Positions 7,367 through 10,242 of a stretch of 10,336 nucleotides of DNA are shown here, one piece after another; the first letter of the stretch is position 1; every line of letters starts with the position of its first letter. The translations under genes were made by a program, and so were the position numbers. The stretch spans positions 1 through 10,336 of the forward strand of contig DMHA01000341.1 in assembly GCA_003449615.1 (NCBI GenBank), given 5' to 3'. A model generated the notes under the pieces. It was not told the origin of the DNA. It ran no database searches and was given only the letters and a program-made list of their open reading frames with translations. The DNA comes from Flavobacterium sp. (GTDB lineage: Bacteria > Bacteroidota > Bacteroidia > Flavobacteriales > Flavobacteriaceae).

Positions 7367-7933
7367 ATGGACATCAACGAAGAAATTCACAAAGCATTTG
7401 AAATAATTAAAGAAGGTGGAATTATCCTCTACCCAACAGATACTGTTTGGGGAATTGGCTGCGATGCCACCAATGCTGATGCTGTTGCCAAAATCTATAA
7501 ACTAAAACAACGGGCCGAAACACAATCGATGATTTGCTTAATGAATGGCGAAAAAATGATATATAATGTTTTCAAAGACATTCCAGAAGTAGCTTGGCAA
7601 ATAATGGATTTGTCTGAAAAACCCACGACTCTAATTTTGGATAAACCCAGAAACGTAGCCCTCAATTTAATTGCCTCCGATAATACTTTAGGAATCCGAA
7701 TCGTCAAAGAGCCTTTCTGTTTCAAATTAATGGAAAAAATGAAAAAACCATTGGTTTCCACATCGGCAAATATCTCGGGACAGCCCACTCCTATTGCCTT
7801 CGCAGCTATTAGTCCAGAAATAATAAAAGGTGTGGATTATGTTGTAAATTTGCACCAAGATAAAATTGCTGGAAAACCATCTACAATCATAAAATTGACG
7901 AATGATTCGCAGGTAAAAGTAATTAGAAAATAG
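7367..7933 (+). CDS. L-threonylcarbamoyladenylate synthase (Sua5/TsaC/YrdC family)
   Basis: Makes threonylcarbamoyl-AMP from threonine, bicarbonate and ATP, the first step of the t6A modification at position 37 of ANN-decoding tRNAs; the TsaD complex then transfers the group. The 188-residue protein is a single YrdC domain without the Sua5 C-terminal domain. Visible are the nucleotide/threonine-site motifs LYPTDTVWGIG (21-31), KIYKLKQR (42-49), STSANISGQPTP (131-142) and KPSTIIKL (170-177). Bacteroidetes often carry more than one YrdC-domain protein, so it may not be the sole t6A enzyme. The start ATG at 7367 follows a -7 box. It leads a plus-strand run through mntA, hepT and cca, so two tRNA-processing enzymes bracket the toxin-antitoxin pair. 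Function by homology is secure. Confidence 0.93.
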   Translation: MDINEEIHKAFEIIKEGGIILYPTDTVWGIGCDATNADAVAKIYKLKQRAETQSMICLMNGEKMIYNVFKDIPEVAWQIMDLSEKPTTLILDKPRNVALNLIASDNTLGIRIVKEPFCFKLMEKMKKPLVSTSANISGQPTPIAFAAISPEIIKGVDYVVNLHQDKIAGKPSTIIKLTNDSQVKVIRK

Positions 7934-7941
7934 TTTTTTTG

Positions 7942-7949
7942 TAACTTTG
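7942..7949 (+). promoter_or_regulatory. Candidate internal -7 box for mntA-hepT
   Basis: TAACTTTG matches TAnnTTTG exactly, 8 bp after the Sua5-like stop codon. A start near 7956 would place only about 9 nt before the ATG at 7965. No TTG lies at the -33 position. If active, it would let the toxin-antitoxin pair and cca be transcribed independently of the upstream gene. Confidence 0.45.
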
Positions 7950-7964
7950 AAAAAAAATGAATTT

Positions 7965-8285
7965 ATGTTAAATCTACCCTCAATATTTCAGAATAAAGCA
8001 TTCGCTGTTGAACAACTTTGCTTAGAAAATAAGGTGGAAAAATTATACCTTTTTGGGTCGGCTTTAACTGCTGATTTCTCTAAAAAAAGTGACGTTGATT
8101 TAATTATAGAAATTGAAGAAAAAAACCCAATCCTAAAAGGAGAAATTTTAATGAAAACTTGGTCCGAATTAGAAAGTATTTTCCAAAGAAAAGTTGATTT
8201 ATTGACTTCTATAAATGTAAAAAATCCTATTCTGAAAAAATCTATCGAAGCAAATATTCAATTAATTTATGACAGAAAAAACTAA
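7965..8285 (+). CDS. mntA: MntA-type minimal nucleotidyltransferase antitoxin
   Basis: Antitoxin of the HEPN-MNT (type VII) toxin-antitoxin class; characterised members transfer AMP groups from ATP to a tyrosine of the HepT toxin and so inactivate it. Counting from the ATG at 7965 (106 residues), the polymerase-beta superfamily signature GSx10DxD is complete: Gly31-Ser32, Asp43 and Asp45, with the third Asp at 78 in RKVDLLTS. Length is typical. A longer reading from a TTG at 7947 adds six residues, but that TTG lies inside a promoter-like box, so the ATG is preferred. The 3' end overlaps hepT by 17 bp, the usual tight arrangement. The sequence is AT-richer than the flanking genes, consistent with acquisition. 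No key residue is missing, so activity is expected. Confidence 0.9.
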   Translation: MLNLPSIFQNKAFAVEQLCLENKVEKLYLFGSALTADFSKKSDVDLIIEIEEKNPILKGEILMKTWSELESIFQRKVDLLTSINVKNPILKKSIEANIQLIYDRKN

Positions 8286-8598
8286 AAAATATTTGGTTGA
8301 CATAATAATTTCAATTGAATTGATTGATGATTTTTTGGGCAATACTATTACATTTTCTGATTATGAACGGGATTTCAAAACCAAAAGTGCTGTTGAAAGA
8401 CAGTTAATAATTATTGGTGAAATAACCAATAAAATTAAAAATATAGAAGTCATAGAACTTTCTCACTCCAAAGAAATTATAAATTTCAGAAATCGTTTAG
8501 TTCATGCTTATGACTCAATTGACGATTCTATCGTTTGGGCAATAAAAATCAATCACTTACCACAATTAAAAATTGAAGTTGAAGCCCTTTTAAAATGA
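8269..8598 (+). CDS. hepT: HepT-type HEPN ribonuclease toxin (DUF86)
   Basis: Toxin partner of MntA. The 109-residue, mostly helical protein carries the HEPN active-site motif RX4HXY as RNRLVHAY, with Arg74, His79 and Tyr81; the Tyr is the residue that MntA-type enzymes AMPylate in studied systems. The preceding AVERQLIIIGEITNKI (41-56) is the typical DUF86 helix. Characterised HepT proteins are RNases, and at least one HEPN-MNT toxin trims tRNA 3' ends. All catalytic residues are intact. G+C over 8281-8520 is 61 of 240 (25%), well below cca. The start ATG lies within mntA (17-bp overlap), and the stop TGA overlaps the cca start codon (ATGA), so all three genes are likely translationally coupled. 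Family assignment is strong; the RNA target here is unknown. Confidence 0.9.
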   Translation: MTEKTKKYLVDIIISIELIDDFLGNTITFSDYERDFKTKSAVERQLIIIGEITNKIKNIEVIELSHSKEIINFRNRLVHAYDSIDDSIVWAIKINHLPQLKIEVEALLK

Positions 8599-10013
8599 AT
8601 TATAAAACTTCTTTAAATAACAACATTTTTCAAATCATTTCTCAAGCTTCTAAAGAACTTCAGATCGAAAGTTATGTGATTGGAGGTTTTGTGAGGGATT
8701 TTCTCCTTGAGAGAGATTTCAAGAAAGACATTGATATTGTTGCCGTAGGCAGTGGCATTGAATTGGCGCAAAAAGTATCGGAACTGCTTCCGGAAAAACC
8801 AAAAGTCCAAGTTTTTAAAACTTATGGAACGGCAATGTTGCGTTTTGAAGATACCGAAATTGAATTTGTAGGTGCTCGAAAAGAATCCTATCATTTCGAA
8901 AGTCGAAATCCTGTTGTAGAAAACGGAACATTGGAAGACGACCAAAATCGTCGTGATTTTACCATCAATGCCTTGGCTTTGTCATTAAACAAAATCAATT
9001 TTGGGGAATTATCAGACCCTTTCAACGGATTGGAGGATATGAAAAATAAAATCATCAAAACGCCGCTCGATCCCGATATTACTTTTTCAGACGATCCGTT
9101 GCGAATGATGCGAGGTATTCGTTTTGCTACCCAATTGGGTTTTGAAATCCAAGAAAATTCTTTAAATTCAATTACAAAAAATGCAGGACGAATCAACATT
9201 ATTTCTGGCGAAAGAATTGTCGATGAATTGAATAAAATCCTTGCCACAGATAAGCCTTCTGTCGGGTTTTTACTGCTTTACAAAACCGGTCTTTTAGATA
9301 TCATTCTTCCTGAATTAACTGCTTTGAACAATGTAGAGGAAATAGAAGGACAAACCCATAAAAATAATTTTTACCATACGCTGGAAGTGGTCGATAATAT
9401 TTGTCCAAATACTGAAGATGTTTGGTTGCGTTGGTCGGCATTATTGCACGATATTGGCAAAGCTCCAACCAAACGTTTCAATAAAAAACAAGGTTGGACC
9501 TTTCACGGACACGAATTTCTGGGCGGAAAAATGGCAAAAAAAATCTTTGAAAGATTGCGAATGCCGTTGAATCACAAAATGAAATTTGTACAAAAAATGG
9601 TAATGATGAGTTCGCGTCCCATTGTTCTGTCAGAAGATATAGTAACCGATTCTGCTGTTCGGCGTTTGGTTTTTGATGCTGGCGAAGATGTTGAAAGTTT
9701 GATGACGCTGTGCGAGGCCGATATTACTACTAAAAACCCTAATAAATTCAAGAAATACCATCAAAATTTTGAAATCGTTCGCAATAAAATTGTGGAAGTG
9801 GAAGAGCGAGATCATATTCGGAATTTTCAACCACCCATTTCGGGAGAAGAAATTATGGAAATTTTCAACTTGCAACCTTCTCGTGAAATTGGCATTCTAA
9901 AAGAAGCCGTGAAAGAAGCCATTTTGGAAGGCGAAATCCCAAACGAATACCAAGCTGCTTATGATTTTGTTTTGAAAAGAGGAGAGAAATTAGGGCTGAA
10001 ATTTGGAGATTAA
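8595..10013 (+). CDS. cca: CCA-adding tRNA nucleotidyltransferase with HD domain
   Basis: Builds or repairs the 3'-terminal CCA of tRNAs from CTP and ATP without a template. The 472-residue class II enzyme has the nucleotidyltransferase head GGFVRDFLL (30-38) with catalytic Asp45 and Asp47 (DIDIV), the RRDFTINALAL motif (119-129), the DDPLRMMRGIRFA motif (166-178) and ERIVDELNKI (206-215). A C-terminal HD domain follows, with LLHDIGK at 283-289 and further histidines at 261, 304 and 306. Distinguishing CCA-adding from A-adding or poly(A) polymerase specificity by sequence alone is not certain. As the only such gene here, and with Bacteroidetes usually using one enzyme, full CCA addition is likely. 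The start ATG overlaps the hepT stop. It ends 1 bp before the stop of the opposing PIN remnant. Confidence 0.93.
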   Translation: MNYKTSLNNNIFQIISQASKELQIESYVIGGFVRDFLLERDFKKDIDIVAVGSGIELAQKVSELLPEKPKVQVFKTYGTAMLRFEDTEIEFVGARKESYHFESRNPVVENGTLEDDQNRRDFTINALALSLNKINFGELSDPFNGLEDMKNKIIKTPLDPDITFSDDPLRMMRGIRFATQLGFEIQENSLNSITKNAGRINIISGERIVDELNKILATDKPSVGFLLLYKTGLLDIILPELTALNNVEEIEGQTHKNNFYHTLEVVDNICPNTEDVWLRWSALLHDIGKAPTKRFNKKQGWTFHGHEFLGGKMAKKIFERLRMPLNHKMKFVQKMVMMSSRPIVLSEDIVTDSAVRRLVFDAGEDVESLMTLCEADITTKNPNKFKKYHQNFEIVRNKIVEVEERDHIRNFQPPISGEEIMEIFNLQPSREIGILKEAVKEAILEGEIPNEYQAAYDFVLKRGEKLGLKFGD

Positions 10014-10014
10014 T

Positions 10015-10242
10015 TTACCACAACAATCTCAAACCTTCCATTCGATAAGGATTCATATTGACGTCATTTGAAATAAATGTAAAATTATTTTTTATGGCTT
10101 GCCAAATCAAAATTCTATCAAAAGGATCTTTGTGGTAATCCAGTTTTAATTTCCATAAAGTTGCCGTTTCATCACAAAGAATAGGGATAATTTTATACCC
10201 TTTTTCCTTAAAAATTATTGGCAATTCAGAAACATTAAGATT
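10015..10242 (-). pseudogene. C-terminal half of a VapC-type PIN-domain toxin, truncated
   Basis: The frame encodes about 76 residues that match the second half of the PIN proteins annotated as VapC-family toxins (about 125 residues when complete). It runs NLNVSELPIIFKEKG, then YHKDPFDRILIWQA with a conserved acidic pair, then FTFISNDVNMNPY, ending RLLW. The N-terminal half, with the first catalytic Asp (DTH-type motif) and the WE(I) helix, is absent. The frame stays open to 10284, where a TAA lies, but has no ATG; a TTG at 10224 would give a 69-residue product. Homology-like sequence ends where the 22-bp repeat at 10243-10264 begins, so the gene was probably cut by a rearrangement there. No antitoxin is visible. 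It is tail-to-tail with cca. Residual function is unlikely. Confidence 0.75.

What the first reader, a model, noticed from the sequence alone, without database searches (positions are those of the whole stretch)
7947..10013. A HEPN-MNT toxin-antitoxin pair is coupled to the CCA-adding enzyme
Seen: hepT's stop overlaps cca's start as ATGA, mntA overlaps hepT by 17 bp, and the unit follows a t6A-synthesis gene. Known: MntA and CCA enzymes belong to the same polymerase-beta nucleotidyltransferase superfamily, and the HEPN toxin of a cyanobacterial HEPN-MNT pair cuts nucleotides from tRNA 3' ends. Inference: a toxin that may remove tRNA 3' ends is co-translated with the enzyme that rebuilds them, so toxin expression and repair capacity would rise together. 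CCA addition alone would not restore a tRNA that had also lost its discriminator base, so the link may instead be metabolic or accidental. Shared adenylate chemistry also raises the question of whether CCA enzyme or MntA can modify HepT.
Basis: partly seen in the sequence, partly recalled or inferred. Interest (0 to 1): 0.75.

Follow-up and report, generated by a model that had tools for sequence, protein, structure and literature searches.

The report
Toxin-antitoxin pair beside tRNA-tail enzyme gene
In one bacterium a common kind of RNA-cutting toxin and its antidote sit directly in front of the gene that builds tRNA tails; the layout is real, perhaps shared by a few relatives, and most likely reflects where the pair landed and not a proven partnership of the two enzymes.

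Summary
In detail: tsaC, mntA (ATG 7965-8285), hepT (8269-8598) and cca (8595-10013) are intact, with overlaps of 17 bp and ATGA. HepT has RX4HXY and MntA GSX10DXD, so the pair meets the motif definition of a class I HEPN/MNT (type VII) toxin-antitoxin.

The pair is an insert. In 51 of 70 other Flavobacterium genomes compared, tsaC lies directly upstream of cca on the same strand; none of the 51 has the pair between them, and 18 have a PDDEXK_3-type gene or remnant there. No other fetched hepT relative lies near cca.

It may not be confined to one strain: two further HepTs (77% and 82% identical) share exact contig lengths and sources with Cca proteins. This is indirect. Against it, the identical HepT's longest contig (102,662 bases) matches no listed Cca.

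Best reading: a self-regulating toxin pair landed upstream of a gene most tRNAs need (22 of 25 readable tRNA genes encode no CCA) and rides on its expression. A toxin-repair circuit is untested; the HEPN reported to trim tRNA ends removes four bases, which CCA addition alone cannot restore. A mycobacterial CCA enzyme opposing a tRNA-end toxin gives the idea some precedent.

The parts
7367..7933 (+). tsaC, L-threonylcarbamoyladenylate synthase (t6A pathway); frequent upstream neighbour of cca in the genus
   Evidence: PF01300 156 bits, TIGR00057 over cut-off; same-strand upstream neighbour of cca in 51 of 70 other genomes compared
7942..7949 (+). promoter-like TAACTTTG (Bacteroidota -7 box TAnnTTTG; consensus recalled), probably the pair's own promoter; no TTG at a -33 distance
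   Evidence: box within 50 nt upstream of mntA in 39 of 82 other pairs against 3.3% of random 50-mers; within 80 nt upstream of cca in 4 of 45 relatives
7954..7963 (+). first copy of the direct repeat AAAATGAATT
   Evidence: chance 1.2% for start-aligned gene pairs, 0.3% if the word must cover the downstream ATG
7957..7971 (+). four-codon upstream ORF ATG AAT TTA TGT TAA overlapping the mntA start; function unknown
   Evidence: sequence
7965..8285 (+). mntA, minimal nucleotidyltransferase antitoxin with GSX10DXD and a third Asp (D78)
   Evidence: NCBIfam MntA model 41.1 bits, under its cut-off of 60
8269..8598 (+). hepT, HEPN ribonuclease-type toxin with RX4HXY (R74, H79, Y81)
   Evidence: PF01934 72.1 bits over cut-off 23.5; motif; NCBIfam HepT model 42.8 bits, under its cut-off of 60
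8592..8601 (+). second copy of AAAATGAATT, spanning the hepT stop and the cca start (ATGA 8595-8598)
8595..10013 (+). cca, CCA-adding tRNA nucleotidyltransferase with HD domain
   Evidence: PF01743, PF12627, PF01966 over cut-offs; one match at E 1e-80 or better in 195 of 196 genus genomes with a match, two pieces in G026

Best explanation
A type VII (HEPN-MNT) toxin-antitoxin pair inserted between tsaC and cca in this Flavobacterium, possibly in an ancestor shared with a few other lineages. Shown: intact motifs, gene order, absence of the pair from the same slot in related genomes, base composition unlike the flanks. Inferred: the pair is transcribed from its own promoter just upstream of mntA; MntA adenylylates Tyr81 of HepT to silence it; HepT acts as an RNase when MntA or ATP runs short; ribosomes ending hepT re-initiate on cca through ATGA. 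The link is mainly a position effect: the insert now carries part of the expression of cca, a gene most tRNAs need, so losing the pair is costly. A working toxin-repair circuit is not needed to explain it.
For: Motifs: RNRLVHAY and GSX10DVD; R74, H79, Y81 in 90, 90 and 91 of 98 HepTs, MntA G31, S32, D43, D45 in 98 of 98 and D78 in 97. Insert: 0 of 51 readable tsaC-cca slots of other genomes holds the pair, among them two relatives with Cca 93% identical; mntA 27.1% and hepT 26.7% GC against tsaC 36.3% and cca 36.8%. Same habit elsewhere: 9 of 17 pairs looked at have a same-strand downstream gene within 200 bases of the end of the hepT match, mostly different genes (L024 and L083 share one). 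Own promoter. More than one lineage: Cca P0188 and HepT P0003 share contig length 37,403 and source lgn, Cca P0239 and HepT P0009 share 6,732 and source jgi; 2 matches against 0.075 expected for 15 HepTs, while 104 more distant HepTs gave 1 match against 0.695 expected. Need for Cca: 22 of 25 usable tRNA genes of this assembly lack an encoded CCA.
Against: Presence in other lineages rests on contig-length coincidence; same contig is not proof of adjacency. The identical HepT (P0001) has a longest contig of 102,662 bases, a length that no Cca in the two listings has, although a Cca beside it should be nearly identical to this one; so on that contig hepT may be at a contig end or away from a full cca. 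P0004, P0010 and P0011 (22-31 kb contigs) matched no listed Cca either; only the best 120 of 7916 and of 7936 Cca were listed. The common HepT end is weak evidence: 16 of 87 other HepTs, none beside cca, end at the same alignment column, three of them also in LLK, and P0013 (78%) is shorter (100 aa). Foreign origin is not proven: the HepT sister clade has weak support (86/68) and holds two named Flavobacterium rows, and MntA is unresolved. The direct repeat and the promoter box suggest different 5' ends of the insert. No expression data.
Confidence: 0.52

Rival explanations
1. Neutral placement: the pair is a selfish insert, cca is still expressed from tsaC read-through or an internal promoter, and the overlap has no consequence.
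For: The slot is variable: of 51 other readable slots 26 have gaps of at most 115 nt, 18 hold a PDDEXK_3-type gene or remnant, 7 have gaps of 140-273 nt (Pfam run on two of the 18 genes). Patchy distribution of hepT. The fixed HepT end is matched by 16 of 87 HepTs elsewhere.
Against: If the two length-matched lineages do carry the junction, it has outlasted lineage splits, and the ATGA overlap is a form known to couple translation (general knowledge).
Confidence: 0.28
2. Toxin-repair coupling: HepT trims or damages tRNA 3' ends, and making Cca in the same burst limits and reverses the damage, so the unit is an ATP-sensing, reversible brake on translation.
For: The only PDB sequences that the HepT profile finds are three versions of the HEPN toxin of entries 7ae9, 7ae6/7ae8 and 7ae2, best E 0.0076; that these are the tRNA-trimming Aphanizomenon protein is recalled. 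A CCA enzyme, PcnA, counteracts the tRNA-end toxin MenT3 when overproduced (PMC11541572, passages).
Against: The known HEPN removes four nucleotides, so the discriminator base goes too (PMC11676413, passage). The fetched HepT kin in other genomes are not near cca and have varied neighbours. Other characterised HepTs cut mRNA or rRNA. Coupling would also raise Cca whenever the harmless complex is made.
Confidence: 0.12
3. Cross-talk of nucleotidyltransferases: Cca, being of the same superfamily as MntA, adenylylates HepT or backs up MntA.
For: Shared superfamily only (Pfam assignments; superfamily membership recalled).
Against: MntA is intact, so no back-up is needed; no binding surface was tested.
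Confidence: 0.02
4. Assembly artefact of a fragmented metagenome assembly.
For: 437 contigs, 75.8% complete; the 102,662-base contig with the identical HepT matches no listed Cca.
Against: In-frame overlaps on both sides of hepT; two length matches in other lineages.
Confidence: 0.03

Closest known systems
HepT/MntA of Shewanella oneidensis (type VII, SO_3166/SO_3165)
   Same: PF01934-type toxin with RX4HXY and MNT antitoxin with GSX10DXD (motif definition from PMC7641770, passages)
   Different: Distant in sequence: its structures were not among the hits of phmmer or the HepT profile against the PDB; no cca neighbour mentioned in the passages I read
HEPN-MNT pair of Aphanizomenon flos-aquae
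   Same: RNRLVH.YD.ID stretch shared with the only PDB sequences that the HepT profile hits (7ae9, 7ae6, 7ae2; that these are of this organism is recalled)
   Different: 157 aa chain against 109 aa; lies next to a type I-D CRISPR-Cas system (PMC11676413, passage)
MenT3 and the CCA-adding enzyme PcnA of Mycobacterium tuberculosis
   Same: A toxin acting on tRNA 3' ends is opposed by a CCA-adding enzyme (PMC11541572, passages)
   Different: MenT3 adds cytidines and is itself a nucleotidyltransferase; whether its gene lies near pcnA was not in the passages I read and was not checked
PDDEXK_3-type genes in the tsaC-cca slot of other Flavobacterium
   Same: Same slot and orientation: an extra gene or remnant between tsaC and cca in 18 of 51 genomes (family from two of them)
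   Different: A different protein family

Membership tests
Class I HEPN/MNT (type VII HepT/MntA) toxin-antitoxin | HepT-like (PF01934) gene next to an NTP_transf_2 (PF01909) gene | tested here: met
   72.1 bits against cut-off 23.5 and 43.5 against 21; genes overlap by 17 bp
Class I HEPN/MNT (type VII HepT/MntA) toxin-antitoxin | RX4HXY in the toxin | tested here: met
   RNRLVHAY, residues 74-81; the motif is in 16 of 16 proteins P0001-P0016
Class I HEPN/MNT (type VII HepT/MntA) toxin-antitoxin | GSX10DXD in the antitoxin | tested here: met
   GSALTADFSKKSDVD; spacing of exactly 10 in 66 of 98 pairs, 9-11 in 97 of 98
Class I HEPN/MNT (type VII HepT/MntA) toxin-antitoxin | Toxicity of HepT and its neutralisation by AMPylation of the motif tyrosine | not testable with these tools
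   Needs expression and mass spectrometry
NCBIfam equivalogs HepT_toxin and MntA_antitoxin (the NCBI names only) | Score over the curated cut-off of 60 bits | tested here: not met
   42.8 and 41.1 bits: the pair does not earn NCBI's equivalog names although it meets the motif definition
CCA-adding tRNA nucleotidyltransferase | PolyA_pol head and RNA-binding domains | tested here: met
   PF01743 86.4, PF12627 72.0 bits, over cut-offs
NCBIfam CCA equivalogs (the NCBI names only) | Score over the curated cut-off | tested here: not met
   Best is TIGR02692, 337 bits against 438.8
CCA-adding tRNA nucleotidyltransferase | CCA addition rather than poly(A) or A-only addition | not testable with these tools
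   Inferred from one strong match per genome and 22 of 25 usable tRNA genes without CCA
Conserved hepT-cca association | Recurs in more than one lineage | tested here: inconclusive
   Two contig-length matches with 0.075 expected; no DNA read there; 102,662-base contig of the identical HepT unmatched; absent from sampled genomes
HEPN ribonucleases that trim tRNA 3' ends | Removal of nucleotides from tRNA 3' ends | not testable with these tools
   Sequence does not tell the RNA target

The most novel reading that the evidence does not exclude
Some Flavobacterium lineages keep a HEPN toxin that removes only the CCA tail from tRNAs, welded by an ATGA overlap to the enzyme that restores it: a reversible, ATP-sensing brake on translation in which antidote, toxin and repair enzyme form one transcript.
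Probability: 0.09. Interest if true: 0.82.

Novelty: new member of a known kind. Interest (0 to 1): 0.38.

Why it matters
If the coupling is functional, it would turn a toxin-antitoxin pair into a self-repairing translation switch and show that repair enzymes can be recruited into toxin operons. If it is only a position effect, it is still a case of how such pairs can persist: by sitting in the expression path of a gene that the cell cannot spare.

Tried and rejected
A single, one-strain insertion was my first reading. I dropped it as the only reading after the protein search and the contig-length matches, but the evidence for more lineages is indirect. The reasons: the 102,662-base contig of the identical HepT matches no listed Cca, and the shared HepT end also occurs in 16 of 87 HepTs elsewhere.

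Target-site duplication as the proven mechanism: the 10-bp repeat flanks the insert, but the promoter box upstream of mntA looks like part of the pair, and several mntA genes begin ATGAATTT, so chance or microhomology is possible. Left open.

Phage or plasmid origin: none of the 19 pattern matches in IMG/VR was a relative of this HepT; four plasmid records matched at 33-42% identity. A tRNA-gene neighbourhood: not evident among 17 pairs, gene identities judged by eye; L022 has a gene 548 bases downstream that looks like methionyl-tRNA synthetase. PADLOC labels MntA PDC-S09; three papers naming it were seen as a listing only. Papers: searches joining HepT or HEPN terms with CCA enzymes (none; 4 papers, listing) showed no report of this gene order, within the held open-access library only; searches added none. 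A family draw of 397 genomes and a phylum draw of 395 gave 16 and 29 genomes with a hepT match at the E limits set, this genome included, none beside cca in the fetched loci.

Full report
What is there. The window is contig C67 of a 2.95-Mb, 437-contig, 75.8% complete assembly. It belongs to Flavobacterium by inference: genome G139 of the same genus has a contig of 4,503,648 bases, the length that the protein database gives for a Flavobacterium limnophilum protein (P0210). From 7367 to 10013 on the plus strand lie tsaC, mntA, hepT and cca, all open. mntA most likely starts at ATG 7965, not TTG 7947. The 17-bp mntA/hepT overlap recurs in six relatives away from cca.

Is it a working pair by sequence? 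HepT has RNRLVHAY and MntA GSX10DVD with a third aspartate, the two motifs that mark class I HEPN/MNT pairs in PMC7641770 (passages). Among 98 distinct pairs from the fetched loci, R74, H79 and Y81 are kept in 90, 90 and 91, and MntA G31, S32, D43 and D45 in 98. Both proteins fall below NCBIfam's naming cut-offs.

Is the link with cca general? No. In 199 Flavobacterium genomes, 56 had a HepT-like match, this one included, and 196 a cca at E 1e-80 or better. I compared coordinates by eye, for genomes whose cca was not listed: in the 54 other genomes with both, none had them adjacent; the nearest on one contig were about 100 kb apart (G168, G056). G181 had no cca match. A DNA search in 398 genus genomes found no copy of the pair above 68% identity over more than 400 bases. 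Of 113 fetched loci with a hepT match (several re-fetch the same place), the four that also hold cca are the window itself; L226-L229 add none. Flanks were 5 kb for L006-L020 and mostly 1.5 kb otherwise, and some loci end at contig ends.

What does the empty place look like? I compared one cca locus from each of 70 other genus genomes. In 51 tsaC lies upstream on the same strand; in 19 it was not found, in four of these because the contig ends there. None of the 51 slots holds the pair: 26 gaps are at most 115 nt, 18 hold a PDDEXK_3-type gene or remnant (PF13366 shown for two; the rest by similarity to one of them), 7 are 140-273 nt. Among them are L052 and L053, Cca 93% identical. In six relatives tsaC and cca are about 6-17 nt apart, so co-transcription of these two is probably the older state (inference). 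mntA and hepT have 27% GC against 36-37% for tsaC and cca. The HepT tree puts the window beside a clade of Marinilabiliaceae, Bacteroidales and Flavobacteriaceae rows, two of them named Flavobacterium, with weak support (86/68); MntA is unresolved. An insert is clear; its donor is not.

Is it one strain only? Undecided, probably not. The protein search lists the identical HepT on 21 contigs and eleven HepTs of 76-86% identity (P0002-P0012), all 109 aa, ten of them ending TEVEALLK; P0013 (78%) is 100 aa. The shared end could come from an overlap with cca, but 16 of 87 HepTs that are not beside cca end at the same column, three of them in LLK, so it says little. I could not read DNA for these proteins and compared contig lengths. 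Two HepTs share exact length and source with a Cca (37,403, lgn; 6,732, jgi): 2 matches for 15 HepTs against 150 Cca lengths, 0.075 expected; 104 more distant HepTs gave 1, with 0.695 expected. A Cca search centred on these two lineages gave no third match. Against this, the identical HepT's longest contig, 102,662 bases, matches none of the listed Cca, although the Cca beside it should be nearly identical to this one; the contig may end there, or hepT may lie elsewhere on it. Only the best 120 of 7916 and 7936 Cca were listed.

How it probably works. Many mntA genes have a TAnnTTTG box just upstream (39 of 82 against 3.3% of random stretches), and this one has TAACTTTG at 7942; cca relatives rarely have it (4 of 45). 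So cca probably now receives transcripts from the pair's promoter as well as from tsaC, and ribosomes finishing hepT can restart on cca. Of 26 distinct tRNA genes read from 30 of the 32 tRNA matches in this assembly, one zero-length row was dropped, 3 encode CCA and 22 do not, so Cca must serve most tRNAs. Losing the pair would then risk lowering Cca; this is the position effect that I favour. A 10-bp repeat, AAAATGAATT, stands before mntA and over the hepT-cca junction (chance 0.3-1.2%) and may mark the insertion, but the promoter evidence puts the 5' end of the insert further upstream.

The repair idea. For it: a CCA enzyme opposes a tRNA-end toxin in mycobacteria (PMC11541572, passages), and the only solved structures that the HepT profile finds are those of the 7ae HEPN toxin, weakly (E 0.0076). 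Against it: the tRNA-trimming HEPN takes four nucleotides (PMC11676413, passage), other HepTs cut mRNA or rRNA, and 17 pairs of the nearer clades have varied neighbours, cca not among them. I give it 0.12. No paper in the held library joins HEPN-MNT genes to cca by the terms I used.

Verdict. The gene order is real and is an insert relative to the sampled relatives; it is perhaps kept in a few lineages. As a toxin-antitoxin pair it is ordinary; the placement is a good test bed.

Noticed in passing
window 10015-10224 (-): Fragment of a PIN-domain (VapC-like) protein directly after cca, without its N-terminal part; PF01850 22.3 bits, under the cut-off of 23.6. Not found in the other loci held, so both sides of cca carry toxin-type sequence.
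   Followed up: partly
tsaC-cca gap in L055, L057-L059, L061-L063, L067, L071, L072, L075, L077, L078, L117, L120, L122, L187, L194: A PDDEXK_3-type gene lies between tsaC and cca in 18 of 51 other genomes; L072 holds only a remnant and L120 matches in two pieces (PF13366 shown for L055 and L077). The slot takes different inserts.
   Followed up: partly
tsaC-cca gap in L052, L053, L056, L060, L118: A palindromic element (such as GTCATTTCGACGAAGGAGAAATC with its reverse complement) fills most of the gap of about 100 nt in five relatives.
   Followed up: no
window 7957-7971: Four-codon upstream ORF whose stop overlaps the mntA start; could couple translation of mntA.
   Followed up: no
G000 contigs C234, C421, C335, C97: Four further HepT-like genes in the same incomplete genome; C421 and C335 have an mntA match upstream.
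   Followed up: no
L200, L204, L220 (G000): Three readable tRNA genes (Tyr, Val, Ser) do encode CCA while 22 do not; exceptions or contaminating contigs.
   Followed up: no
protein P0001, contig of 102,662 bases: The identical HepT occurs on a long contig whose length matches no listed Cca: either a contig end at the insert or a second location of the pair.
   Followed up: partly
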